From Thermodesulfobium sp. 4217-1 (lineage in GTDB: Bacteria; Thermodesulfobiota; Thermodesulfobiia; Thermodesulfobiales; Thermodesulfobiaceae), in NCBI RefSeq assembly GCF_039822205.1, contig NZ_JBAGBW010000029.1:1-17992 (forward strand): a stretch of DNA of 17,992 bases, written 5' to 3'. Below are positions 2 through 16,773 of this stretch, piece after piece. The notes below the pieces were generated by a model, which saw nothing but the letters and a program-made list of their open reading frames with translations, did not search any database and was not told where the DNA came from. The position numbers and the translations under genes are program-made. Position 1 is the stretch's first letter; every line of letters starts with the position of its first letter.

Positions 2-3000
2 GTCGCAATCCCTTATTCATCAGGGAATCTTTCCAACCCAACTTGAGGTGAAAACAAAGTTTTTTGGAGTGTTTTTAAAAGAGTCGCAATCCCTTATTCA
101 TCAGGGAATCTTTCCAACCGTTATCAAAAAATTTGAAAAGGAGGTCTAAAAAAAGTCGCAATCCCTTATTCATCAGGGAATCTTTCCAACCAAAAAAAAA
201 AGAGGAGAGTGTGTGAAATGTCAGTCGCAATCCCTTATTCATCAGGGAATCTTTCCAACGATCTCCAAGATTGTTTGGCAAATACGCCACGCGATCGTCG
301 CAATCCCTTATTCATCAGGGAATCTTTCCAACAAGAGGTGCTGTCTTTGCCGTATAGCGGCAAGGAAAGCTCCACGTCGCAATCCCTTATTCATCAGGGA
401 ATCTTTCCAACAAGAACCAAATTCTGTTTACTACAGGCGGCAATGTGCCTGTAGTCGCAATCCCTTATTCATCAGGGAATCTTTCCAACTAGTAAGGGTG
501 GGAGCCAAGTGGGTCACCACTTGGTTTAAAGTCGCAATCCCTTATTCATCAGGGAATCTTTCCAACCGTAGGCGAAGAGGTGGCAGCATTTCAAAGTGGC
601 CCCATAGTCGCAATCCCTTATTCATCAGGGAATCTTTCCAACAGTACCGTGTTGATTTAAATAACGGTCCCACTGATAAGTCGCAATCCCTTATTCATCA
701 GGGAATCTTTCCAACTGATGCTGTATTCAGTCTTTGAGGGAAGGGACGGCCTTATTGTCGCAATCCCTTATTCATCAGGGAATCTTTCCAACCAGCAGTA
801 CAGGAAAAAACTTGATCCTCTTTAGCACAGGGGGTCGCAATCCCTTATTCATCAGGGAATCTTTCCAACCAAAGAAAAAAAGGATGGCCTGGTGTATGTC
901 AGGCCAGTGGTAAGTCGCAATCCCTTATTCATCAGGGAATCTTTCCAACTAGAAGGTAAAAATCTTATTCGTTTTAGAGGGGGGGTGTATAGTCGCAATC
1001 CCTTATTCATCAGGGAATCTTTCCAACCAAAAAAATGGTTGCAGTTTTTGAAGGGAAGGACGGCCTAAGACATAGTCGCAATCCCTTATTCATCAGGGAA
1101 TCTTTCCAACATTAGAGTAGGGGATACGTGGGTGACCACGTGGTTTGTAGAGTCGCAATCCCTTATTCATCAGGGAATCTTTCCAACCCCCCGTGATATT
1201 GATTTGGTTGAGGACTACACCCCCGTATAGTCGCAATCCCTTATTCATCAGGGAATCTTTCCAACTCATGGTGGACGGCCAGAAAATATTGAGCCTGCCA
1301 TTTGATGGGTCGCAATCCCTTATTCATCAGGGAATCTTTCCAACTAAACTTGGAACCAGGTGGATCACTTGGTTCCAGGACCCAGACAGTCGCAATCCCT
1401 TATTCATCAGGGAATCTTTCCAACTTTGTTTTTTGAAATTTAAAAAATTTTTGGGAGGTCTAAAGTCGCAATCCCTTATTCATCAGGGAATCTTTCCAAC
1501 ACTGCAATACAATGTATTGATGAGGTCAACCCTGTCGCAATCCCTTATTCATCAGGGAATCTTTCCAACAAAACAATTTTTGCAGTATTTTTGAAGGACG
1601 GGGAGTTTAGGTCGCAATCCCTTATTCATCAGGGAATCTTTCCAACAATGAGATCGTTAATGAGTTTAGAGGCCCCATCGTGGGCCTGTCGCAATCCCTT
1701 ATTCATCAGGGAATCTTTCCAACGAGTATGATTTCGAATAAGGGTTTAAAGCCCTGCAGCAATGGTCGCAATCCCTTATTCATCAGGGAATCTTTCCAAC
1801 TGGTTCAGTGAGGATAACCTTGCAAGTGTAGTGCCCTTTATGTCGCAATCCCTTATTCATCAGGGAATCTTTCCAACGCTCTACACTGATACTGTTCGCG
1901 TATATTATCCGAACAGATTGTCGCAATCCCTTATTCATCAGGGAATCTTTCCAACCTGGCAGGTTCAAAAATTTGAAAAAAGGGAGGTGCAAAAAGTCGC
2001 AATCCCTTATTCATCAGGGAATCTTTCCAACTTAAAACAAAAAACGGGAGGTTTACGATGAAAGAGTTTAAGTCGCAATCCCTTATTCATCAGGGAATCT
2101 TTCCAACTGCCTGGCAAATACTCCAGGCGTCATCAATTGACGATCTGTCGCAATCCCTTATTCATCAGGGAATCTTTCCAACAGATGTATCACGTTTTCA
2201 AAGTGGCCCCATAAGGGGCCAGTCGCAATCCCTTATTCATCAGGGAATCTTTCCAACAGTAGCAGAAGATGTATCACGTTTTCAAAGTGGCCCCCCCAGT
2301 CGCAATCCCTTATTCATCAGGGAATCTTTCCAACTCGTCAATAGCTTTAGAGGCCCCATCGTGGGCCTGGGTGTCTAGTCGCAATCCCTTATTCATCAGG
2401 GAATCTTTCCAACTATTGCGGGTGGTTGATGAGGATCCAGGTCTAATTAAGCTAGTCGCAATCCCTTATTCATCAGGGAATCTTTCCAACATTCACTATT
2501 CTTGTGTCAGAAGGGAGATGATGATGAGTTAAGTGTCGCAATCCCTTATTCATCAGGGAATCTTTCCAACTATATGCGCCCCGTAGTCAGAGTAGGAACA
2601 AAGGTTGTAATAAGTCGCAATCCCTTATTCATCAGGGAATCTTTCCAACCGTACTATAAAACTCATAGGGCTATTGGGAGAAGAAACAATGTCGCAATCC
2701 CTTATTCATCAGGGAATCTTTCCAACCGTTAAAGATGAAAAATTTTAAAAAGCTTACTGTTAATATTGTCGCAATCCCTTATTCATCAGGGAATCTTTCC
2801 AACATAGTACACCCCAGGTAGAGGGGGTTGGGGTATACGAAGTATTGTCGCAATCCCTTATTCATCAGGGAATCTTTCCAACCCCTTATAGAGTTACAAT
2901 AGAGTTACAGGCCCTGCAGTAAGTCGCAATCCCTTATTCATCAGGGAATCTTTCCAACTACCAGGATCAAATATTGAAGGTAGGGTTGAACGTTTATACT

Positions 3001-6000
3001 GTCGCAATCCCTTATTCATCAGGGAATCTTTCCAACATATACTTCCCCCAGTTCTGGAAAGACTACATCAAAAAGTCGCAATCCCTTATTCATCAGGGAA
3101 TCTTTCCAACAGAAATGAAGGCCTGAAGATGTATGGGAGGCGTAGTCCAGTCGCAATCCCTTATTCATCAGGGAATCTTTCCAACGGTTCATGGACAAGG
3201 ATCCGATGCAATATGATGTGTTGCTGAGTCGCAATCCCTTATTCATCAGGGAATCTTTCCAACAAGATGTTGTATGCAGTTTTTACAAGCAACAAGGGCC
3301 TGATACAGTCGCAATCCCTTATTCATCAGGGAATCTTTCCAACAGGGATATACCTAAGGATAAGTAAAAGGCATTGCACTTATTGTCGCAATCCCTTATT
3401 CATCAGGGAATCTTTCCAACATTCAAAGAATTAACCGTCCTTTTGGACGGCCAAAAAGTATTATGTCGCAATCCCTTATTCATCAGGGAATCTTTCCAAC
3501 AGGGAATGTCCCTGTTGTTGTAAACAATGAGATCGTCGCAATCCCTTATTCATCAGGGAATCTTTCCAACGTTGAAAGGTATGAAATGTTTTGCTGTGTA
3601 TCAAGTTGCAAGGTCGCAATCCCTTATTCATCAGGGAATCTTTCCAACATGAGCAACAGGTGTTTAAGGCTGCTAAACTTGAAATCCTGTCGCAATCCCT
3701 TATTCATCAGGGAATCTTTCCAACGGATCTGCTCCCTGATTGGAACCAGCCTGATTGGCTGAATGAAAGGTCGCAATCCCTTATTCATCAGGGAATCTTT
3801 CCAACAGGGAGGTAATAAAATGCTGTATGGAGTTTTTCAAGAAGGCAGGTCGCAATCCCTTATTCATCAGGGAATCTTTCCAACAGGGCCGTTTTAAAAA
3901 AAAAAATTTTAATCGGAGGCCTAAAATGAGTCGCAATCCCTTATTCATCAGGGAATCTTTCCAACTCTAATGGCAGGGCTTTTTGTTTTAAGTTAAAAAA
4001 AGTCGCAATCCCTTATTCATCAGGGAATCTTTCCAACTTGGTTGCTCATTGATGGTAGAAGAAGCAGCATATAAAGGTCGCAATCCCTTATTCATCAGGG
4101 AATCTTTCCAACATGCAGTTAAGTCTGAAAATGGAGAGTCTGCACATGCTGGTCGCAATCCCTTATTCATCAGGGAATCTTTCCAACGAAACAGGTGAGC
4201 CCTTAATAAAAGCTGAAGGGAGAATAGTCGCAATCCCTTATTCATCAGGGAATCTTTCCAACTTGAGGGAGGTTAAACATGAGCAAGTTTTTCGGAGTAT
4301 TTGTCGCAATCCCTTATTCATCAGGGAATCTTTCCAACACCACCTGGTTTATGGACCATAACCCCTTAGAGTATATGGTCGCAATCCCTTATTCATCAGG
4401 GAATCTTTCCAACTAGGGTGGTGGATGAAGGTTTAGCTCTGATAAGACTGTCGCAATCCCTTATTCATCAGGGAATCTTTCCAACGTCTCTGTCATGTGT
4501 TGACAAAGACAGTAGTAGTGGTAAAGTCGCAATCCCTTATTCATCAGGGAATCTTTCCAACACGATGAAGTTATCCTGGCAGATCTAGATTGTTATATAG
4601 TCGCAATCCCTTATTCATCAGGGAATCTTTCCAACGGCAGCTAACAGTCTTAATTGATGGTCAAAAAATCTTGTCGCAATCCCTTATTCATCAGGGAATC
4701 TTTCCAACACAAGTAGAGCAGCTTTTAGCAATCTTTTAAAGATCTGTCGCAATCCCTTATTCATCAGGGAATCTTTCCAACAAGGATGTGTGTGATCAGG
4801 AAGTTTTCAAGGCTTTAAAAAAGTCGCAATCCCTTATTCATCAGGGAATCTTTCCAACATAGACGGCCAAGAGGTTCTATCTCTACCGTTCATCGGTAGG
4901 TCGCAATCCCTTATTCATCAGGGAATCTTTCCAACATGGCGCCCCCAGGTTTATCATAGTAAAGAAAACAGAAAAGTCGCAATCCCTTATTCATCAGGGA
5001 ATCTTTCCAACTGGCAGATACCCTGCTAGGGTTTTGCAAGAAGAATAATTTGTCGCAATCCCTTATTCATCAGGGAATCTTTCCAACTATACCTTCCATG
5101 CATCAAGTGTTAATGATCTGAATCAGATGTCGCAATCCCTTATTCATCAGGGAATCTTTCCAACTAAGAATTGGTAAAGATATGTATTTAAAAGTGAGTA
5201 ATAAGTCGCAATCCCTTATTCATCAGGGAATCTTTCCAACCCACGTGGGTTACCACGTGGTTCATGGAAGATGCACCTGAAATGTCGCAATCCCTTATTC
5301 ATCAGGGAATCTTTCCAACTGCAATGAAAAAGTTAGTTGTAACAATAGATGGCCAGTCGCAATCCCTTATTCATCAGGGAATCTTTCCAACTGGTGGAAG
5401 GCCTGGGTGTATATGAGTTACTCAATAGTCGCAATCCCTTATTCATCAGGGAATCTTTCCAACCCTGGACAGTCTAGTCCAGGACTACCGTACGCCCCAG
5501 GTAAGTCGCAATCCCTTATTCATCAGGGAATCTTTCCAACATCGATGCCAGGTGGGTTACCATCTGGTTCGATGAGCAAAAGTCGCAATCCCTTATTCAT
5601 CAGGGAATCTTTCCAACCAGATATAGTTATATTTGTGTACAGAAACAATTATGTCGCAATCCCTTATTCATCAGGGAATCTTTCCAACGGGTTGAACGTT
5701 TACACTTCTAAGAAGTAACGTTCAATCACTAGTCGCAATCCCTTATTCATCAGGGAATCTTTCCAACCACGTGGGTTACCACGTGGTTTAAGGATGAAGA
5801 TCCAGTAAGTCGCAATCCCTTATTCATCAGGGAATCTTTCCAACAGTTAAAAATTGTTTTAGATGGCACTGAAATTTTAAGCCTGTCGCAATCCCTTATT
5901 CATCAGGGAATCTTTCCAACGTGAAGTACTGTGATGTGTGGGGCTATGCCCCATACGTCAAGTCGCAATCCCTTATTCATCAGGGAATCTTTCCAACTAG

Positions 6001-6987
6001 ATTTTATGGACTTGGTCCCCGTATAGGGGGCCAGGTCAAGTCGCAATCCCTTATTCATCAGGGAATCTTTCCAACTTGATTGAAGGAGTTGGGAGTAATG
6101 ATGTATGCAATTTTTGTCGCAATCCCTTATTCATCAGGGAATCTTTCCAACTTTGCACTGGTCCTGGTCTATGGGGGGCCACAAGCCCCCATGAGTCGCA
6201 ATCCCTTATTCATCAGGGAATCTTTCCAACTTACAAAAATGAAAGAGTTCAAAAAGCTATCAATCAGTATGTCGCAATCCCTTATTCATCAGGGAATCTT
6301 TCCAACTTTATGGGGGGCCACAAGCCCCCCGAACCATAGATTTGATGGTCGCAATCCCTTATTCATCAGGGAATCTTTCCAACTAACTGACTTCCCTGTG
6401 CTACTATCTCTGCCATCAGTCGCAATCCCTTATTCATCAGGGAATCTTTCCAACAACAAGTTCTTAATTTTGCCAACTTAGTTGCAAAGCTTGAAGTCGC
6501 AATCCCTTATTCATCAGGGAATCTTTCCAACAAAAACTGGTCTGATGCATTTAAGACCAGTTATCAAAATGTCGCAATCCCTTATTCATCAGGGAATCTT
6601 TCCAACACACCCATGGTACAGGGCCTAGGGGTGTATGAAGTAGTGTCGCAATCCCTTATTCATCAGGGAATCTTTCCAACTGCTCCTAAATGCTCTAAAA
6701 TTGAACGCAGTGAAAAAAAAAGTCGCAATCCCTTATTCATCAGGGAATCTTTCCAACTTTATCCCATACGATAAAGACTTTGTAGAAAGAATGGGAAAAG
6801 TCGCAATCCCTTATTCATCAGGGAATCTTTCCAACTATAGATTTGCTTGATTATGACTTTGAGTAAAGTTAGTCGCAATCCCTTATTCATCAGGGAATCT
6901 TTCCAACAGGCTTTAAAAATTGAAATCCTTGATAGTTTAGTCAAGGATTTCGTCGCAATCCCTTATTCATCAGGGAATCTTTCCAAC
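2..6987 (-). CRISPR. CRISPR array, 92 repeats of 36 bp and 91 complete spacers
   Basis: The 36-bp unit on the plus strand starts GTCGCAATCCCT and ends ATCTTTCCAAC. I located 92 copies by eye; all look identical. Starts run 2, 83, 155, 224, 297 ... 6722, 6800, 6872, 6952. Spacers are 33-47 bp, mostly 39-43. Position 1 is the end of another spacer, so the array continues beyond the left edge. Transcription is assigned to the minus strand because a strong promoter abuts the right end and because the transcribed repeat then ends in ATTGCGAC, resembling the ATTGAAA(C/G)-type 8-nt 5' handle of many type I and III crRNAs. In that orientation the repeat holds a 5-bp stem, TCCCT/AGGGA, around an 8-nt loop. 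There are no cas genes in the window, so the subtype is not fixed by context. Neither visible end shows repeat decay, suggesting an active or recently active array. The spacers are highly redundant; see findings. Confidence 0.99.
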
Positions 6988-7818
6988 TGTACCCATTATA
7001 AACCTTGATTTATCAATAGTCAAATAGATAAGATCCTCGGAAGGGGTGGGTATGATTTTCTATCATAATTCTAAGCAGTGCCCAATCCCAATTTTCGGCT
7101 ATATTAAGCTAAAAAATTTTCCTCGGATGAAAACGAATTTAAGCCATTTTTTGGACTTCGTTGGGATACCAGTATACAGTTGAAAAAATAACTTTATTTG
7201 ATTGTCAAAGAACAAAAATTTATTCATATGATTACTCAAACTTCCAAATTATATCATATATTTTTGTTAACTGACGAAAATTTTATCCCTTAAGAAAATT
7301 TTAATTTTGCCACCAAATTAAAGAATTCTTTAGGAATTGGGTGGATAAGAGAACATAAGCTGGATATAGCTAAAAAATTATCAAGCGCCTTTGCATAAAT
7401 TGCAGATTAGATTAACAATTCATTAACAGATGTCAGATATATTTATCATTTAAGAATTTTAATCAGCTAATAAATTTTGCCAGGCTATATGTAGAGGCAA
7501 TATATTTAATTCTTAAAAGTACGATAAAATTTCTTATTCATATATTGAACAAATGTCCAAATAAGTTTAAAATTGAGTGTAAAAAGCTTAGAGGGGAATC
7601 CTAAAATCGATACAAAGTTAAATTTTGCTATAAATGAATTTGATCGAAGGTTATTCGCCAGCCTTAGAGCTTTAGAAAAAGGTCTAAAATTTTACTTGCT
7701 ATTTGACAATATCATGCGATTGGTGAATTTGGAAATTGGCGCTCTATATTAAATTCATATTTCTATACTTTCTGGTCAGCCTTCAATCTTTCTTGAAATT
7801 TGAAAGAGAGCTTTAAAT
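6988..7818. other. AT-rich non-coding region: CRISPR leader and divergent operon upstream region
   Basis: These 831 bp hold no convincing gene. The left part is the array leader with the promoter described separately. A short inverted repeat, TATGAT (7051-7056) and ATCATA (7062-7067) with a 5-nt loop, lies about 65-80 bp from the first repeat and could be a leader anchor site for adaptation, but it is weak evidence. The string GCTAAAAAATT occurs near 7109 and 7368, probably chance in AT-rich DNA. The right part should carry the promoter for the helicase operon. A TTGACA at 7703-7708 has no good -10 box at 16-18 bp, so I do not call that promoter. The start codon at 7819 is preceded by AAAGAGAG at 7803-7810, a plausible ribosome-binding site. 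Confidence 0.7.
6995..7023 (-). promoter_or_regulatory. Array promoter in the CRISPR leader
   Basis: Read on the minus strand, TTGACT (7023 to 7018) is followed by exactly 17 bp and then TATAAT (7000 to 6995). Seven bases, GGGTACA, then separate the -10 box from the first repeat at 6987, so the predicted transcription start lies at or just before the repeat edge. This near-consensus sigma-70-type promoter fixes the array direction as right to left and marks the right end as the leader-proximal, spacer-acquiring end. It is inferred from sequence only. Confidence 0.8.
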
Positions 7819-10800
7819 ATGGAACTTATCGATAATGTAAATAGTCTTTTGGGCGACGATCTAAAATCTACTATAAATGCTAATTCAAAATTAAAAATTG
7901 CAGCCTCTTGTTTTTCTATGTATGCCTATGAAACGTTAAAAAGAGAGCTATCAAGGATAGATTCGCTTGAATTTATCTTTACCTCACCCTCTTTTGTCCC
8001 GTTGGATATGCTTGATAACACGAAAAAGCAGCACAGGGAATTTTTTATATCGAAAACTGAGAGAGAGAAAAGTTTTTATGGCAGCGAATTTGAGATTCAG
8101 CTAAAGAATAAGCTTACCCAAAGGGCTATTGCAAAAGAGTGTGCTGAATGGATTAAGAAAAAGGCTAAGTTCAGGTCCAATATTACAAATGCCCCAATGC
8201 AGCAGTTTATCTGTGTTTCACAGGCTGAGAAAAGTTATATTTACAGTCCTATTCAGGGATTTACAGCAGTAGATCTGGGCTATCAAAAGGGGAATGCTAT
8301 CTCAAATTTTGTAAACAAGTTTAATGAAATTCCTATGACTCAGACTTATCTAAATCTTTTCGATCAACTTTGGGCCGATAATGAGAAGCTAAAGGATGTT
8401 ACGGATATCTTGATCAATCACATTTCTACCGTCTATAAAGAGAACCCACCAGAATTGATCTATTTTTTGATGATATACAATATATTTAACGAATTTTTGG
8501 AAGACATAAACGACGACGTCCTGCCAAATGACAGGACTGGATTTAAAGATACTGTTGTCTGGAACAAGCTATACAACTTCCAAAAAGATGCAGCATCAGG
8601 AATTATAAACAAGCTTGAGACTTTCAATGGCTGCATTTTAGCAGATAGCGTAGGTCTGGGTAAAACCTTTACTGCGCTCGCAGTTGTAAAATACTATGAG
8701 CTTAGAAATAAATCTGTTTTGGTTCTGTGTCCAAAAAAACTTGCAGATTACTGGCTGAATTTCAATAAAAACCTTAAAACAAATACCTTTGTAAAGGATA
8801 GGTTTAACTACGACGTCCTAAATCATACTGATTTGCTTAGGAAAATGGGATATTCTTACGGCATCCCATTGGATAGGGTAAATTGGGGAAATTATGACTT
8901 GCTTGTGATTGATGAGTCTCACAATTTTAGAAATAATATCGCCTTCAAAGATAGAGAGACGCGATATCAAAGGCTGATGAACGAGGTTATCAGATCAGGC
9001 GTGAAGACAAAGGTTCTTATGCTCACTGCTACTCCTGTGAACAATAGATTTAACGATCTAAAAAATCAATTAGCCTTTGCCTATGAGGGTAACCCCGATG
9101 TTCTTGCCAGCAAGCTAAACGTTTCAAAAAATATTGAAGAGATATTTAGAAGGGCACAGGTAGCTTTTAACGCATGGTCAAAACTGCCTTCTGAAAAGAG
9201 AACGCCAGAGGCTATATTAAATTCTCTTGACTTTGACTTTTTCGAGCTTTTGGATAGCGTTACTATAGCGAGATCAAGAAAGCATATCCAAACTTTCTAT
9301 GATACGGCCGATATCGGTCAATTTCCTCAAAGAAACAAACCTATATCATACCGTTCGAAGCTTACCGATATGCCAAATATTCCAGGCTTTAACGATATTT
9401 ATAAGGAGCTATCATTGTTGAAAATGGCTATATACGCCCCAATCGGGTATATTTTGCCAAGTAGGATTGGAAAATATGAAGAGTTATACGATACAGAAGT
9501 TCACGGCGGCAAAAGTAAATTTCGCCAGGTAGACAGGGAACGTAGCCTCCAGGCTCTAATGACCATCAATCTTCTAAAAAGATTGGAGAGCTCTGTTTCT
9601 TCATTTAGACTATCCCTTGAAAGGCTAAAGGATAGTATCTCTGTGGCAGTGGGCAAAATAGATGACTTTTATCAAGGGAAAACTGCTACTTTTATAGAGC
9701 CAAATCTTGTAGACGAAGATGCCTTGGATGATGAAGATATTGAAAATATAGATAACTTTTTTGCCAGCAAAAGTATCCAGATAAGCCTAAAGGATATGGA
9801 TACAAAGTCTTTTATATACGACCTAAAATCAGATTTGGCGATTATTGAAAATCTTTTAGGCTATATGAATAAAATTACACCCCAGCACGACTACAAGCTG
9901 CAGCATCTGAAGAGTCTGCTTACAACTAAAATTCAAAATCCTATAAACGAAGGCAACAGAAAAGTGCTAATCTTTACCGCTTTTGCAGATACCGCGAAAT
10001 ATCTGTATGAAAATATATCTAAGGACTTTCTTCGAAAATTCAATATTCATTCAGGACTCATCACTGGTTCAGATACCCCACGATCGACTCTGGGCAAGGG
10101 GTATGACTTTCAATCCCTTCTTACTCTCTTTTCTCCCATCTCAAAAGAAAAGTCAGTAGTTATTCCAGAGGAAACAAGAGAAATAGACTTTATAATCGCC
10201 ACAGATTGCGTTAGCGAGGGCCAAAACCTTCAAGATTGCGACTATGTGATAAATTATGATATCCATTGGAATCCCGTTATCATCATCCAAAGATTTGGCA
10301 GAATTGACAGGATAGGCTCAAAAAATAAAGTTATTCAGATGATCAACTACTGGCCTGATATCTCGCTTGATGAGTATATCAATCTAAAAGAGAGAGTAGA
10401 AAATAGAATGATAATCGCAGATGTGTCTGCGACAGGCGATGACAACGTCCTAAGCGCCAAGGCAAACGACATTTCATTTAGAAAAGAGCAGCTAAAGAAA
10501 CTTCAGGAAGAGGTCATCGACTTAGAGGACATAAAAACAGGTGTAAATATTACAGATTTGGGTTTGAATGACTTTCGAATGGACCTGATAAACTACCTGA
10601 AAACTCACAAAGATTTAGAAAAACTTCCAAATGGACTTCATAGCGTAGTTTCATCTGATATCACGAAAAATCTGCCTCCTGGAGTAATATTTGTCTTGCG
10701 CAACAAAAATCATAGCATCAACACAAATCAACAAAATAGGCTTCACCCATACTATCTGATCTACATCTCAAAAAATGGAGAAATTGTAGTAAACCATACT

Positions 10801-11088
10801 GAACCAAAGAAAATTTTGGATATTACAAGAAGCCTATGTAAAGGTAAGGGTGAGCCCATAGAAAAAGTATATACGACTTTTAACAATGCCACAAGAGACG
10901 GCAAAGATATGAATACATATTCCAAACTTTTGGAAAGGGCTATATCGTCTATAGTAGAAGTTCAGGAGGAAAAGGATATAGATTCTCTTTTTAGCGGTGG
11001 TGGTACGACCTCTCTGGCAAATAAGATAAGGGGTTTGGATGATTTTGAGCTCATTAATTTCATAGTCGTTCAGGAAGAAGACCGATGA
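7819..11088 (+). CDS. SNF2-family helicase with degenerate PLD-like N-terminus, first gene of extended type III R-M operon
   Basis: This 1089-residue protein is a superfamily 2 ATPase of the SNF2/Rad54 type. Visible motifs are YNFQKDA (about 252-258), Walker A ADSVGLGKT (275-283), the Walker B/DEXH box VIDESH with D365-H368, motif III MLTATP (401-406), then a long insertion with an acidic stretch (about 632-650). The second lobe has VLIFTAF (from about 716), TDCVSEGQNL (795-804) and motif VI QRFGRIDRIG (824-833). The first 165 residues, with the pattern KIAASCFSMYAYETL then a hydrophobic strand, resemble a phospholipase D-like fold, but I see no HxK(x)4D motif, so that domain is probably not catalytic. 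The start is supported by AAAGAGAG eight bases upstream. The stop overlaps the next gene by ATGA, implying translational coupling. Likely role: DNA translocase or remodeller working with the Mod/Res pair downstream. The helicase assignment is firm; the role in defence is inferred from context. Confidence 0.92.
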   Translation: MELIDNVNSLLGDDLKSTINANSKLKIAASCFSMYAYETLKRELSRIDSLEFIFTSPSFVPLDMLDNTKKQHREFFISKTEREKSFYGSEFEIQLKNKLTQRAIAKECAEWIKKKAKFRSNITNAPMQQFICVSQAEKSYIYSPIQGFTAVDLGYQKGNAISNFVNKFNEIPMTQTYLNLFDQLWADNEKLKDVTDILINHISTVYKENPPELIYFLMIYNIFNEFLEDINDDVLPNDRTGFKDTVVWNKLYNFQKDAASGIINKLETFNGCILADSVGLGKTFTALAVVKYYELRNKSVLVLCPKKLADYWLNFNKNLKTNTFVKDRFNYDVLNHTDLLRKMGYSYGIPLDRVNWGNYDLLVIDESHNFRNNIAFKDRETRYQRLMNEVIRSGVKTKVLMLTATPVNNRFNDLKNQLAFAYEGNPDVLASKLNVSKNIEEIFRRAQVAFNAWSKLPSEKRTPEAILNSLDFDFFELLDSVTIARSRKHIQTFYDTADIGQFPQRNKPISYRSKLTDMPNIPGFNDIYKELSLLKMAIYAPIGYILPSRIGKYEELYDTEVHGGKSKFRQVDRERSLQALMTINLLKRLESSVSSFRLSLERLKDSISVAVGKIDDFYQGKTATFIEPNLVDEDALDDEDIENIDNFFASKSIQISLKDMDTKSFIYDLKSDLAIIENLLGYMNKITPQHDYKLQHLKSLLTTKIQNPINEGNRKVLIFTAFADTAKYLYENISKDFLRKFNIHSGLITGSDTPRSTLGKGYDFQSLLTLFSPISKEKSVVIPEETREIDFIIATDCVSEGQNLQDCDYVINYDIHWNPVIIIQRFGRIDRIGSKNKVIQMINYWPDISLDEYINLKERVENRMIIADVSATGDDNVLSAKANDISFRKEQLKKLQEEVIDLEDIKTGVNITDLGLNDFRMDLINYLKTHKDLEKLPNGLHSVVSSDITKNLPPGVIFVLRNKNHSINTNQQNRLHPYYLIYISKNGEIVVNHTEPKKILDITRSLCKGKGEPIEKVYTTFNNATRDGKDMNTYSKLLERAISSIVEVQEEKDIDSLFSGGGTTSLANKIRGLDDFELINFIVVQEEDR

Positions 11089-11753
11089 ACGGATATTTTT
11101 CTTATCCTGCCTATACATACAAGGGGAAAAACATACCAAAAACAAAATTTTATGAAAATGCCAAAATAGACAATCGTTTGAAAGAGAAGTTTGTAAAAGA
11201 AATTGACAAAATTATATGGCAGCACAACCTCTCAAAGGATACTGTCAATGTAGATAGCGCTCAAGAAGTCACAGAGATTCAGATTTTCGATATTCACTTA
11301 AAGGGAGAAAATATTAGCCAGGACGTGTTAATGGCTATTGATAAGGCTATAGCCTATCCTGTAATTTTTCAGATTGTAAAGGGAAGCAAGATGAAAATCA
11401 AAGCTGCCTACAAAAAGCTCAGCAAGAATATCAGCCAAAAATCCCTTTCATCGCAATATCTGGAAACCGATTGGTTCGACATTAGCCTGGAAAGAAAGCC
11501 TCTTCCTGTGAGCCTTAGCCTCTCAAAGCTATATGAGGCAATCCTGGATGATCTAATGTCTATTCAGCTAAATATACCTGATAACCTCAATGTGGAAGAA
11601 AAACTTGATGAATATTCCAAAGTAGTAGGCCTAAAGAGAAAATATGATGAGCTAAGGTTAAAAAGAGATAGAGAAAAGCAATTTAACAAGAGAGTAGAGC
11701 TAAATTATAAATTGAAAAAATTATATTCACAGATAGAGGGAAGGATAAAATGA
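11085..11753 (+). CDS. DUF4391-like protein between the helicase and Mod
   Basis: This 222-residue protein is recognised by overall pattern as DUF4391. It has IPKTKFY near residues 17-23, a helix ending in KIIWQHNL (about 42-49), an acidic strand VTEIQIFDIHL (about 62-72), a later PVIFQI strand followed by a helix, and WFDISL near the middle. The last 45 residues are highly charged and look like a coiled coil (EKLDEYSKVV through LNYKLKKLY). No enzymatic motif is visible. Start and stop both sit in ATGA overlaps with its neighbours, so it is co-translated with the helicase and the methyltransferase. From memory, proteins of this family occur next to SNF2 helicases and type III-like Mod/Res genes; a structural or adaptor role in that complex is a guess. 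I cannot confirm the family without a profile search. Confidence 0.75.
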   Translation: MNGYFSYPAYTYKGKNIPKTKFYENAKIDNRLKEKFVKEIDKIIWQHNLSKDTVNVDSAQEVTEIQIFDIHLKGENISQDVLMAIDKAIAYPVIFQIVKGSKMKIKAAYKKLSKNISQKSLSSQYLETDWFDISLERKPLPVSLSLSKLYEAILDDLMSIQLNIPDNLNVEEKLDEYSKVVGLKRKYDELRLKRDREKQFNKRVELNYKLKKLYSQIEGRIK

Positions 11754-13699
11754 TAGAAAAACTTGATATGAGGACGCCTGATTTTAGTGACAAGAATATT
11801 GAACTTATTTCAAGGCTATTTCCAAATTGTATAACTGAGCAAAGAGATGAAAAGGGGACGCCAAGAAAGGCTATTGACTTTGACCTTCTCAGGCAAGAGC
11901 TTTCAAAGGATATAGTAGAGGGCACCAAGGAGAGATACCGCCTGGAGTGGCCTGGCAAAAAAGAAGCCCTCCTTTTGGCAAACACCCCAATAAATAAAAC
12001 GCTAAGGCCTATAAAAGATGACAGCGTAAATTTTGATACCACGCAAAATCTTTATATAGAAGGGGACAATTTGGATGCGCTAAAGCTCCTTCAAGAGAGC
12101 TACCTGAACAAGGTAAAGATGATCTATATCGACCCTCCCTATAACACTGGAAAAGATTTTGTATACAAAGATAACTTTACGATCGACAAGGAAGAAGAGC
12201 TAAAAAGCAGCGGACAAATGGATGAATATGGCAACAGGCTTATAAAAAATGTGGAGTCAAACGGCAGATATCATAGCGACTGGCTATCTATGATGTACCC
12301 AAGGCTAAAACTTGCAAGGAATCTTCTAAGAGATGACGGAGTGATATTTATCTCAATAGATGACCATGAAGTGCACAATCTAAGAAAGATTTGTGATGAG
12401 ATTTTTGGAGAGAGGAATTTTGTTTGTGAGTTTGTGTGGGCAGGAAAAAGTGGATCAGAAGACGATAGCCATATTAGAAATAACAAAGAATATATACTAT
12501 GTTTTGCTAAACGAGTTAATCAATTTGAAGTTGGATATGACTTGAAAAAAGAAGAAAAATTTAACTTATTTGATTCTAAAAAAAACGATTTCTACAAGCG
12601 ACAATTATTAAGAAAATGGGGGGATAATAGTAAAAAAGAAGATAGACCAAATCTACATTATGCAATTCAAGATGATGATGGAAAAATTTTTTTTCCAAAG
12701 TTGCCCAATGGTGAAGATGGCTGTTGGAGATGGTCTAAAGAAACGATGCAGTTGGCTATTAAAGAAAGTAGAATTGAATTTGCATTTAATAGTAAAGGTA
12801 TCAAAGAAGCCTACGAAAAAATTTATCAATCAGAAGAAAGAAATAATAACAAAAAATTTCAAAGTTTACTATATGAATTAGGCAGTAGCGCTGAAGGAAC
12901 AAAAGAAGCTAAAAATTTATTTAATGATAATAAAATATTTTCAAACCCTAAACCAACTAAGTTATTAAAAAGATTATGTAAAATTGCAGGTTTAAATTCA
13001 TCAGATATCATCCTCGATTTTTTCAGTGGTTCAGCAACAACTGCTCATGCAGTTATGCAAATAAACTCTGAAGATGGCGGCAATCGTAAGTTTATTATGG
13101 TGCAGATTCCTGAACCGACTGATGAAGACAGTGAGGCATATAAGGCAGGATACAAAAATATATATGAAATTGGCAAGGAAAGGATCAGAAGGGCAGGGGC
13201 TAAGATAATTGAAAATATAGCCCAGGAGTCCTCCAAAAAAAACGATCTTTTTAATGAAACCAAGACTGCGCCATCGCTTGACATTGGGTTTAGAGTCCTA
13301 AGAGTGGATAGCTCAAATATGAAAGACGTATACTATTCCCCTGATGAGACAAAAAAGGAAGATATGCTTAGCTTCGTTAGCGACATAAAAGACGACAGAA
13401 CCGATCTGGACTTGATATATCAGGTGATGCTTGATAGTGGAGTGGAATTAGCCCTTTCTATTGAAGAAAGATATATTTTAGATAAGTTGGTTTATTTCGT
13501 GGGCGAAAATATCCTTGCAGCATGCTTCGCGACTGATCTGAACAAAGAATTCTTCATTGAATTTGCAAAACAATCTAAAGATAACGACTTGCTAAAGGTT
13601 GTATTTAGAGATAGCAGCTTCGATAGCGATGATACAAGAATCAATGTAGAACAGATCTTTAGACAGTATTCTCCAAGCACTCAGATAAGGGTTATCTAA
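11750..13699 (+). CDS. mod: Type III restriction-modification DNA adenine methyltransferase (Mod)
   Basis: This 649-residue protein should transfer a methyl group from S-adenosylmethionine to N6 of adenine and give the system its sequence specificity. The order of motifs is that of the beta class: motif IV IDPPYNTG (D128-P-P-Y131) comes first and the AdoMet-binding motif DFFSGSATTAHA (from D423) comes last, with the target-recognition region between. The N-terminal segment YIEGDNLDALKLLQE just before DPPY is typical of Mod. Length matches known type III Mod subunits (about 600-680). GGGAAGG upstream supports the start, which overlaps the DUF4391 stop. The central part, about 12480-13020 (residues 244-424), has roughly 27% GC by hand count against about 40% on either side, suggesting a swapped recognition domain. 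The stop overlaps the Res start (TAATG), as usual for co-expressed Mod and Res. Confidence 0.95.
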   Translation: MIEKLDMRTPDFSDKNIELISRLFPNCITEQRDEKGTPRKAIDFDLLRQELSKDIVEGTKERYRLEWPGKKEALLLANTPINKTLRPIKDDSVNFDTTQNLYIEGDNLDALKLLQESYLNKVKMIYIDPPYNTGKDFVYKDNFTIDKEEELKSSGQMDEYGNRLIKNVESNGRYHSDWLSMMYPRLKLARNLLRDDGVIFISIDDHEVHNLRKICDEIFGERNFVCEFVWAGKSGSEDDSHIRNNKEYILCFAKRVNQFEVGYDLKKEEKFNLFDSKKNDFYKRQLLRKWGDNSKKEDRPNLHYAIQDDDGKIFFPKLPNGEDGCWRWSKETMQLAIKESRIEFAFNSKGIKEAYEKIYQSEERNNNKKFQSLLYELGSSAEGTKEAKNLFNDNKIFSNPKPTKLLKRLCKIAGLNSSDIILDFFSGSATTAHAVMQINSEDGGNRKFIMVQIPEPTDEDSEAYKAGYKNIYEIGKERIRRAGAKIIENIAQESSKKNDLFNETKTAPSLDIGFRVLRVDSSNMKDVYYSPDETKKEDMLSFVSDIKDDRTDLDLIYQVMLDSGVELALSIEERYILDKLVYFVGENILAACFATDLNKEFFIEFAKQSKDNDLLKVVFRDSSFDSDDTRINVEQIFRQYSPSTQIRVI

Positions 13700-16600
13700 T
13701 GAGAGCCCAAATGAACTTTAGGTTTAAAAAGCAAGCATACCAGCTTGATGCAGTAAAATCAGTTGTAGATTGTTTTAAAGGTCAAAGTAAAATTGAAGGC
13801 ATAAGATATAGAATTGATCCAGGCAAAGAAAGGGCTCAATTTATTCCAAATCTTGAAGAAGAGTTTTTGCCAGGGTTCAAGAATAGCGAATTTACTATCT
13901 CAAAAGATACAATACTTGAAAGTATTCAAAGAGTCCAAAGAGAGAGAAACCTCCCTGTGAGCGATGCGCTGAAGAAAAATATTGTCTGCGATGTGAACCT
14001 TGACGTTGAGATGGAGACGGGAACTGGCAAGACCTATGTATATACCAGAACCTGCTTTGAGCTAAACAAAGAATATGGATGGAACAAATTTATCATCGTA
14101 GTGCCCAGCATTGCTATTCGTGAGGGAGTATATCAGTCAATAGAGCTTACGCGTGAGCATTTCTTAGAAGAATTTGGCAAGCAGGCGAAAGCTTTTATTT
14201 ACAACTCCAAAGAACTTCACAATATAGAGAGCTTTTCCAGCGATGCAGGTATCAATATAATGATCATCAATGTGCAGGCATTTAACGCAACAGGAGCTGA
14301 CAACAGAAGAATCTATGACGAGCTTGATGAGTTTTCTTCCAGAAGGCCAATTGACGTAATAAAGGCAAATAGACCTATACTTATCATAGATGAACCCCAA
14401 AAGATTGAAGGAAATGATAAAAAAGAGAGTAAGAGTTTTATAAGCCTGAAGGAATTTAATCCGCTATTTATCCTTAGATATTCAGCTACTCTTAGAAGAG
14501 TATATAATAAGGTATACAGATTGGACGCGCTGGATGCCTACAACCAAAAACTTGTAAAAAAGATTAGTGTAAAGGGCATCTCTGTAAAAGGGCTGTCGGG
14601 AACGAATGCATATCTTTATCTCCAGAACATTGAGATTAGCTCCACAAAGCCACCTGTAGCCAAGCTGGAAATTGAGATAAAGAAGCAGGGCTCTATCAAG
14701 AGAGACCTCAGAATTCTTGAGGTCGGCGATGACCTATTTATAAAGTCAAATGAACTTGAAGAGTATAGAGGCTATGTGGTAAGCGAAATTGACGCATACA
14801 AGAACAAGATATTTTTTAAAAATGGATTAGAGCTAAGCGTAGGAGATGTGGTGGGGGATATTAGCGAGGATACAGTTAGGAGGATTCAGATAAGGGAGAC
14901 CATCAAGGCTCATCTGGAAAGGGAGAAGGGGCTTTTTAATAAGGGCATAAAGGTACTTAGTTTATTTTTTATTGATGAAGTTGCAAAATATCGAGTATAC
15001 AACGACGAAAATGAAAAAAACGGCGAATATGCCAAAATATTTGAAGAAGAATATGACTCAGCGGTAAAGGACTTGGGGCTAATATTTGACAAGGGTTATG
15101 AAGAATATCTAAATGCTATAAAGCCTTATGAGACCCATAATGGATATTTTGCACGGGATAAAAAGGGCAATCTTACAGACCCAAAGATTAAATTAAGAGG
15201 CGAGGATGCTGGCGAGGCTGATGACGTAGATGCGTATGATTTGATATTGAAGGACAAGAAAAGGCTTCTCTCATTCGAAGAAAAGACGCGTTTTATATTC
15301 TCTCATTCAGCTCTCAGGGAGGGCTGGGACAACCCAAATGTGTTTGTAATCTGTGCGCTCAGGCACAGCGAAAATACTATTTCCAGACGACAAGAAGTGG
15401 GTCGTGGAATGAGAATATGTGTAAATAAATATGGCGAAAGACTTGACGACCCGATCAGTGTTCACGATATCAATGTGCTAACCGTGGTGGCAAATGAAAG
15501 CTACAAAGATTTTGTAAGCTCATTACAAAAAGAGATTAGTGAGACATTGAGCGAGAGGCCCAGGGTGGCCAGTGCTGAATACTTTAGTGGCAAAATCATT
15601 CATTCTGAAGGCGAAAAAATAAAAGTTTCCAAAGAAATGGCTGATAAGCTTGAATACTATCTCATTCGAAACGGTTATGTCGATGAAAATAAAAATATTA
15701 GTGAAAAATATCACGAGGATAAAAAATCAAATACCTTAGCTCCTCTTCCTGAGAGCTTAAAAGAGTATGGGGGAGAGGTATTTAAACTTGTCGACAGCGT
15801 GTTCAGCGAAAGCGCTCTCAAGGATATTGTAGAGGATAGCTCAAGGCTAAAGCCAAATCCTATAAACGATGCAAATTTTGGAAAAAAACAGTTTCAGGAA
15901 TTGTGGCAAAGCATAAACAAAAAAGCTATTTATACGGTTAACTTTGACAGCAGAGAGCTAATCGATAACGCAAAAAATGCTATTGAAAGAGAGCTTCTGG
16001 TAAGCAGTCTGGAATACACCGTTGTCAGCGGGACGCTTGAAGCAATGGATGCTGAGATGCTAAAAGCTAAGCAAAACTTTGAGATAACAGAGACCGAAAA
16101 TATAAAAGAAAAAAACTCTGTAAATTCAGGTGTAAAATACGATTTGGTAGGCAAGATCGCCTCAAATACCAATCTGACAAGAAAGACAGTTGGACAGATT
16201 TTAGCTAAGCTCTCTGATGAGAAGTTCAGTTATTTCCAGAAGAATCCAGAAGAGTTTATCTCAGAAGTATCAAGAATTATCAGCGATCAGAAGGCTTCTA
16301 TGGTCATTCAGAAACTGGTCTATACTCCAATAGAAGATAGATTTGATACGAATATCTTTACTCTGAATCAGGCTACTTATAACTTTGAAAATGCAAAAGA
16401 GGTCAAAAAGAATATTTACAAATACCTTGTTTCAGAATCAAATGTCGAGAGAGATTTTGCAGATAGTCTTGACGCAAGCAATGAAGTGATAGTCTATGCC
16501 AAGCTTCCAAAAGGCTTCGCCATACCTACGCCTGTGGGAGATTATAACCCTGACTGGGCAATAGTCTTTAAGGATGGTAGAGTTCAATATATATATTTTA

Positions 16601-16773
16601 TCGCTGAGACAAAGGGCAGCATGTCCAGCCTGGAGCTTAGAAAGATTGAAGAGATGAAGATAGAGTGCGCTGAGAGATTTTTTGAAGAGTTAAGCTCAGA
16701 CAATGTGAAATTAAAGTACGGCGAGATTGACAATTTTGAAACTTTGTGGAAGATCGTAGCTGGTAGAGGGTAA
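13699..16773 (+). CDS. res: Type III restriction-modification helicase-endonuclease subunit (Res)
   Basis: This 1024-residue protein is the ATP-dependent translocase and nuclease partner of Mod. The N-terminus has QAYQLDAVKSVV (from about 11), Walker A METGTGKT (105-112), IIVVPSIAIREGV, the Res-typical Walker B variant IIDEPQ (D231-Q234) and motif III YSATLRR (from 261). The second lobe contains HSALREGWDNP (from 536) and motif VI RRQEVGRGMRI (563-573). The C-terminal nuclease of the PD-(D/E)xK type is intact: NPDW with D952, then a beta strand, then ETKG with E970 and K972. All catalytic features I can check are present and the length is normal, so the subunit is probably active. The start at 13699 shares one base with the mod stop. 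A second Met four codons later is possible, but the TAATG junction favours the first. Confidence 0.95.
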   Translation: MRAQMNFRFKKQAYQLDAVKSVVDCFKGQSKIEGIRYRIDPGKERAQFIPNLEEEFLPGFKNSEFTISKDTILESIQRVQRERNLPVSDALKKNIVCDVNLDVEMETGTGKTYVYTRTCFELNKEYGWNKFIIVVPSIAIREGVYQSIELTREHFLEEFGKQAKAFIYNSKELHNIESFSSDAGINIMIINVQAFNATGADNRRIYDELDEFSSRRPIDVIKANRPILIIDEPQKIEGNDKKESKSFISLKEFNPLFILRYSATLRRVYNKVYRLDALDAYNQKLVKKISVKGISVKGLSGTNAYLYLQNIEISSTKPPVAKLEIEIKKQGSIKRDLRILEVGDDLFIKSNELEEYRGYVVSEIDAYKNKIFFKNGLELSVGDVVGDISEDTVRRIQIRETIKAHLEREKGLFNKGIKVLSLFFIDEVAKYRVYNDENEKNGEYAKIFEEEYDSAVKDLGLIFDKGYEEYLNAIKPYETHNGYFARDKKGNLTDPKIKLRGEDAGEADDVDAYDLILKDKKRLLSFEEKTRFIFSHSALREGWDNPNVFVICALRHSENTISRRQEVGRGMRICVNKYGERLDDPISVHDINVLTVVANESYKDFVSSLQKEISETLSERPRVASAEYFSGKIIHSEGEKIKVSKEMADKLEYYLIRNGYVDENKNISEKYHEDKKSNTLAPLPESLKEYGGEVFKLVDSVFSESALKDIVEDSSRLKPNPINDANFGKKQFQELWQSINKKAIYTVNFDSRELIDNAKNAIERELLVSSLEYTVVSGTLEAMDAEMLKAKQNFEITETENIKEKNSVNSGVKYDLVGKIASNTNLTRKTVGQILAKLSDEKFSYFQKNPEEFISEVSRIISDQKASMVIQKLVYTPIEDRFDTNIFTLNQATYNFENAKEVKKNIYKYLVSESNVERDFADSLDASNEVIVYAKLPKGFAIPTPVGDYNPDWAIVFKDGRVQYIYFIAETKGSMSSLELRKIEEMKIECAERFFEELSSDNVKLKYGEIDNFETLWKIVAGRG

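What the first reader, a model, noticed from the sequence alone, without database searches (positions are those of the whole stretch)
38..6951. Coding-strand bias: crRNAs predicted to be antisense to viral mRNA
Every spacer I could orient, including about a dozen that contain a Shine-Dalgarno sequence followed by a start codon, has its coding sense on the plus strand. The array promoter at 6995-7023 drives minus-strand transcription. The mature crRNAs would therefore base-pair with mRNA. Type III effectors (and RT-Cas1-linked RNA acquisition) are known to need or produce this polarity; DNA-targeting type I arrays usually show no such bias.
Basis: partly seen in the sequence, partly recalled or inferred. 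Interest (0 to 1): 0.82.

Follow-up and report, generated by a model that had tools for sequence, protein, structure and literature searches.

The report
CRISPR array aimed at phage mRNA
This 91-spacer array belongs to an RNA-targeting (type III-A) CRISPR system and nearly all its guides are complementary to the messenger RNA of its invaders, whereas the DNA-targeting CRISPR arrays of the same species show no such bias; the pattern is real and of a known kind, though the targeted genes turn out to be oddly rich in RNA hairpins.

Summary
The window holds 92 identical repeats and 91 spacers; a leader and promoter conserved in three arrays (6995-7023, minus strand) and the repeat's ATTGCGAC end give minus-strand crRNAs. 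Spacer sense lies on the plus strand by three tests: homologous spacer pairs agree in strand (57:2, both exceptions palindromic), GGAGG motifs occur 24:0 across four arrays, and a codon model gives 89-100% sense (host genes 96%). The type I-B arrays of two of these genomes are unbiased (37-41%). The own genome carries a type III-A csm1-5/csm6 operon with Cas1, Cas2 and a CRISPR-associated primase-polymerase beside an array of the same repeat family, but no reverse transcriptase. So "antisense to mRNA, type III" is supported; "RT-Cas1 RNA acquisition" is not. Best explanation: ordinary type III-A immunity against DNA phages, with the bias kept by selection, as shown in Thermus. A gene rebuilt from the spacers (P1) belongs to a DNA-encoded family and also occurs as a spacer in a type I-B array. 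Unexplained: the spacers are as hairpin-rich at synonymous sites as RNA-phage genomes, with one covarying stem, unlike host genes, DNA phages or Thermus spacers.

The parts
2..6987 (-). CRISPR array A: 92 identical 36-nt repeats, 91 spacers of 33-47 nt; truncated at the contig start; read on the minus strand the repeat is GTTGGAAAGATTCCCTGATGAATAAGGGATTGCGAC (crRNA tag ATTGCGAC)
   Evidence: the same ATTGCGAC repeat end is seen in the Thermus type III arrays
6988..7240 (-). leader, conserved with those of array B (own genome, L014) and of a sister species (L043)
   Evidence: 87% mean column identity over 296 columns (repeat included)
6995..7023 (-). sigma-70-like array promoter TTGACT-N17-TATAAT, conserved in the three leaders
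490..530 (+). spacer A7: sense strand of gene P2 (VRVGAKWVTTWFK); carries the covarying hairpin CCAAGTGG-GTCA-CCACTTGG
1111..1151 (+). spacer A15: variant of the same P2 site (IRVGDTWVTTWFV)
5241..5283 (+). spacer A69: variant of the same P2 site, CCACGTGG-GTTA-CCACGTGG
5541..5581 (+). spacer A73: variant of the same P2 site, CCAGGTGG-GTTA-CCATCTGG (compensated)
412..453 (+). spacer A6: sense strand of gene P1 (KNQILFTTGGNVPV)
   Evidence: DNA-encoded homologues
3421..3464 (+). spacer A45: sense strand of gene P1 (FKELTVLLDGQKVL)
2032..2071 (+). spacer A27: Shine-Dalgarno GGGAGG then ATG of gene P1 (MKEF...)
2491..2534 (+). spacer A33: target shared with type I-B spacer C36, same strand (23 of 24 nt)
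4038..4076 (+). spacer A53: overlaps type I-B spacer C13 on the opposite strand (17 nt exact)
6758..6799 (+). spacer A89: target shared with type I-B spacers C9 (own genome) and F76 (sister species)

Best explanation
The array supplies guides to a type III-A (Csm) complex encoded elsewhere in the genome. Transcription from the leader at 6995-7023 reads the minus strand (shown by leader, promoter and repeat-tag conservation; the RNA itself was not measured). Because spacer sense lies on the plus strand, the crRNAs are complementary to invader mRNA (shown statistically). Csm would bind nascent phage transcripts, cleave them and signal to the Csm6-like CARF protein (inferred from the family). The invaders are most likely DNA phages or mobile elements, sampled repeatedly in a few small genes (P1 and P2). 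The near-complete strand bias is most likely kept by selection: only spacers that pair with transcripts protect, as shown for RT-less type III in Thermus (inferred here).
For: Strand bias by three independent measures. Type I-B arrays of two of these genomes unbiased (0.37, 0.41), so the bias follows the effector type, not the host or its phages in general. csm1-5, csm6-like, csx3-like, cas1, cas2 and PrimPol genes beside array B, whose repeat and leader match the window array. Same bias in two sister species; array D of one of them lies beside its primase-polymerase gene. DNA nature of targets: P1 homologues are encoded in 12 of 386 searched bacterial genomes; spacer F3 of a type I-B array matches P1, and several further I-B spacers overlap type III-A spacers, some on the opposite strand. 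Selection gives the same bias in Thermus (PMC7515739), and natural type III arrays show coding-strand bias generally (PMC8482600). The end-sequence preference of spacers does not explain it (predicted sense/antisense weight 0.96).
Against: No actual protospacer, phage or transcript was found in IMG/VR, the phage or plasmid collections or the genomes searched, so targets are inferred from the spacers. The minority orientation is so rare (under about 2%) that selection alone would have to remove nearly every non-functional spacer; no drift with spacer age is visible. The RNA-phage-like hairpin density of the spacers is not predicted by this explanation.
Confidence: 0.77

Rival explanations
1. 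The bias arises at acquisition: the Cas1-Cas2-PrimPol module takes spacers from transcripts (or RNA:DNA hybrids, or the displaced coding strand) and inserts them in a fixed orientation, so guides are antisense without selection.
For: The bias is near total and equal in old and new spacers; the three species whose III-A arrays are biased carry the primase-polymerase; spacer ends show an asymmetric signature (last base A 55%, next base mostly G/C), compatible with directional processing.
Against: No reverse transcriptase in four genomes; tested primase-polymerases prefer DNA templates (PMC8211822); even RT-Cas1 of Marinomonas orients only slightly more than half of its spacers usefully (PMC5576922); Thermus type III needs only selection (PMC7515739).
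Confidence: 0.15
2. The target is an RNA virus (ssRNA-phage-like), and the array records RNA.
For: Spacer hairpin excess over synonymous permutation (about -1.8 to -2.5 kcal per 40 nt) matches or exceeds MS2 and Qbeta (-1.7, -1.5) and not DNA phages (0 to -0.3) or host genes; a covarying stem in gene P2; no DNA copy found in the collections searched.
Against: Gene P1, rebuilt from spacers, belongs to a small-protein family encoded in bacterial DNA genomes; a type I-B spacer (F3) matches P1, and other I-B spacers overlap type III-A spacers; the I-B arrays, which serve a DNA-targeting system, share the hairpin excess in part; no reverse transcriptase; no polymerase motif recognised in the spacers.
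Confidence: 0.06
3. The bias is an artefact of base composition or of a PAM-like preference.
For: The plus strand of the spacers is purine-rich and spacer ends have a sequence signature.
Against: Homologous spacer pairs agree in strand whatever the composition (57:2 palindromes); the end signature predicts no orientation preference (0.96); I-B arrays of two of these genomes are unbiased.
Confidence: 0.02

Closest known systems
Type III-A/B CRISPR arrays of Thermus thermophilus (PMC7515739)
   Same: RT-less type III; repeat ending ATTGCGAC; spacers almost all complementary to phage transcripts and concentrated in a narrow region
   Different: Thermus bias was shown in laboratory infections and traced to selection; here it is seen in long natural arrays of three species, and the adaptation module includes a primase-polymerase; Thermus spacers show no hairpin excess
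CRISPR-associated primase-polymerase (CAPP) type III systems, e.g. Marinitoga (PMC8211822)
   Same: TPR-AEP primase-polymerase of NCBIfam NF040561 next to Cas1/Cas2 and csm genes
   Different: no reverse transcriptase found in the genome
Coding-strand bias of type III spacers in public genomes (PMC8482600)
   Same: bias towards mRNA-pairing guides
   Different: 88% in the Moraxella III-B example there; here about 98% or more by homologous pairs; type I-B spacers here unbiased, whereas that survey finds a coding-strand preference in I-B
RT-Cas1 type III-B of Marinomonas mediterranea (PMC5576922)
   Same: type III interference requires antisense guides
   Different: it carries RT-Cas1 and orients spacers only weakly; no RT here

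Membership tests
Type III-A CRISPR-Cas | cas10/csm1 with csm2-csm5 | tested here: met
   TIGR02578, TIGR01870, TIGR02582, TIGR01903 and TIGR01899, all above cut-off, on contig C1 (L014)
Type III-A CRISPR-Cas | the window array served by that system (same repeat family, leader and tag) | tested here: met
   repeats closely similar, conserved leader, same ATTGCGAC tag; no cas genes in the window itself
Type III-A CRISPR-Cas | guides complementary to transcripts | tested here: met
   (statistical; no protospacers found)
CAPP-associated adaptation module | primase-polymerase next to cas1/cas2 | tested here: met
   NF040561 281.9 bits against cut-off 200; Cas1 L014:9275-10309, Cas2-like ORF L014:8985-9278 (Cas2 named from position and sequence, no HMM run)
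RT-Cas1 type III | reverse transcriptase fused or next to Cas1 | tested here: not met
   PF00078 absent from four genomes; the control rang in three known genomes
RNA-virus-targeting array | protospacers in an RNA virus genome | tested here: inconclusive
   RNA-phage-like structure but DNA-encoded P1 family and I-B overlap

The most novel reading that the evidence does not exclude
The invaders recorded here carry genes whose mRNAs are densely folded by synonymous choice, at RNA-phage levels and with a covarying stem. Either they are RNA replicons recorded by an RT-less, primase-polymerase adaptation module, or they are DNA phages whose transcripts have evolved to fold, perhaps to hide from RNA-targeting type III immunity.
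Probability: 0.15. Interest if true: 0.8.

Novelty: new member of a known kind. Interest (0 to 1): 0.42.

Why it matters
It is an unusually clean natural example of mRNA-directed spacer polarity: long type III-A arrays in three species, with unbiased type I-B arrays in two of the same genomes as internal controls, in a system that pairs Cas1 with a primase-polymerase and lacks any detected reverse transcriptase. That separates effector-driven polarity from RNA acquisition. The hairpin excess among the spacers, seen more weakly also in the I-B arrays, is a separate and unexpected lead about the phages of these hot-spring bacteria.

Tried and rejected
RNA-virus reading: pursued because of the hairpins and covariation, and largely rejected after P1 homologues were found in bacterial DNA genomes and a P1 spacer in a type I-B array. 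IMG/VR hits to P2 (L058, L059) are leviviruses, but the 11-residue match lies antisense to their RdRp, so it is chance. The GTGGGTNACCACNTGGTTY scan gave 3 hits, none resembling P2 beyond the pattern. phrog_37097 as a name for P1 gave no hits in 241 genomes. Fold-back synthesis during acquisition as the origin of the hairpins: rejected because independently acquired, differently offset spacers of the same gene carry the same stem with compensating changes. Hairpin-centred acquisition: stems are not centred within spacers, and Thermus spacers show no excess. Host-derived spacers: none evident against the array-less congener.

Full report
What is there. The window is contig C29 of a 2.0-Mb genome. 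Its left 7 kb are a CRISPR array of 92 identical 36-nt repeats and 91 spacers, cut at the contig end. The window has no cas genes; to the right lie a SNF2-type helicase and a type III restriction-modification pair.

Which system. The genome has two cas1 genes. On contig C1 (L014) lie csm1-csm5, a Csm6-like CARF protein, a Csx3-like protein, Cas1, a short Cas2-like ORF, a Cas4-like nuclease and a CRISPR-associated primase-polymerase of type A1, beside array B (50 repeats) whose repeat differs from the window repeat at a few positions and whose leader is conserved with the window leader. On contig C4 (L013) lie type I-B genes, Csx11/Cmr genes and array C with another repeat. Sister species carry array D (94 repeats, G001, beside its primase-polymerase) and array E (52 repeats, G002, on another contig than its primase-polymerase), and G001 also has an I-B-type array, F. 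The third congener, G003, has one orphan repeat of this family and no primase-polymerase match above the cut-off.

Direction of transcription. A TTGACT-N17-TATAAT site lies 7 nt beyond the last repeat on the minus strand and is conserved in the B and D leaders. On the minus strand the repeat ends ATTGCGAC, as do the Thermus type III repeats recovered. The crRNAs were not observed directly.

Strand bias. With no protospacers available I used the spacers themselves. Shared-sequence pairs within A+B are same-strand 57 times and opposite-strand twice, both palindromic; D gives 14 same-strand pairs and two opposite-strand palindromic ones, and E 4:0. GGAGG is 24:0. A codon model trained on host genes puts 93, 90, 89 and 100% of the spacers of A, B, D and E in sense, against 96% for held-out host gene fragments, while I-B arrays C and F give 37% (17-59) and 41% (28-56). 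The bias does not change with spacer age, and the base preference at spacer ends cannot produce it.

What is targeted. Overlapping spacers give two recurrent genes. P1 (about 60 aa, MKNFKKLTVxIDGxxVLSLPFxGKDSSTGKNVILFTTGGNVPVVVNNEIVKVGLNVYTSKK, a composite of several spacers) is shared by the arrays of the three species. A profile built from it finds DNA-encoded homologues in 12 of 386 bacterial genomes, e.g. MKNVELNVEGTILTVKIDLSKSFGPSSSGKTIIIASTEGNITIPDRDEKIGLNVYRKKA. P2 begins MLYAVFEGKDGLIYIRPVVKVGARWVTTWF (also a composite) and is sampled by about 20 spacers around one site. Neither was found in IMG/VR, the phage collection or (P1) the plasmid collection. Type I-B spacer F3 of the sister species matches P1, and C13, C36, C9, F76, F46, F53 and F56 overlap type III-A spacers, three of them on the opposite strand. 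The invaders are thus most likely DNA-based.

Why the bias. Type III guides must pair with transcripts. In RT-less Thermus, acquisition is from both strands and selection leaves almost only antisense guides (PMC7515739); public type III arrays show the same tendency (PMC8482600). No reverse transcriptase was found in these genomes, and tested primase-polymerases prefer DNA templates (PMC8211822). I therefore favour selection, and give directional acquisition 15%.

The unexplained part. Spacers of all four type III-A arrays fold far better than dinucleotide shuffles (mean z about -1) and than permutations of synonymous codons (-1.8 to -2.5 kcal per 40 nt, z -7 to -10). The same permutation test gives MS2 -1.7, Qbeta -1.5, phi6 -1.0, and DNA phages and host genes 0 to -0.3. 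P1 homologues in bacterial chromosomes show nothing in that test, and Thermus spacers show nothing against dinucleotide shuffles. The I-B arrays show a weaker excess. One stem in P2 keeps pairing through compensating changes in 10 spacers: 98.6% of cells paired, covariation score reached by 1 of 500 shuffles. Stems are not centred in spacers. This looks like selection on RNA structure in the invaders. It is the signature of an RNA phage, but the P1 evidence points to DNA; I could not reconcile the two and give an RNA-virus target 6%.

Verdict. Observation confirmed; type III antisense reading supported; RNA acquisition not supported; phenomenon known, with a good natural control; the hairpins deserve follow-up.

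Noticed in passing
window 38-6951; L014, L043, L044 arrays: Type III-A spacers have an excess of hairpins over synonymous-codon permutation as large as in ssRNA phages, with a covarying stem in gene P2; weaker in the I-B arrays; absent in host genes and Thermus spacers.
   Followed up: partly
window 38-6951 and arrays B, D, E: Spacer ends are asymmetric: the last plus-strand base is A in 55%, G is rare at position -3, and the next base in the target is G or C in 27 of 37 cases inferred from overlapping spacers.
   Followed up: partly
window 7819-16773: SNF2-type helicase (best PADLOC match HKD+Snf2), a 222-aa protein, and a type III methylase and restriction enzyme, next to the array leader: a defence island.
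   Followed up: partly
L046:5479-5514 (G003): One orphan repeat identical to the array-B repeat in the congener without the arrays, possibly a remnant.
   Followed up: no
L057 (G001, record 812677-815136): The I-B-type array of the sister species is interrupted by about 2.4 kb between its 85th and 86th repeat.
   Followed up: no
L060-L069: P1 homologues (SGK...GN...GLNVY, about 60 aa) occur in diverse bacterial genomes; one, in G208, sits beside genes that look like a type I restriction-modification locus; no function known to me.
   Followed up: partly
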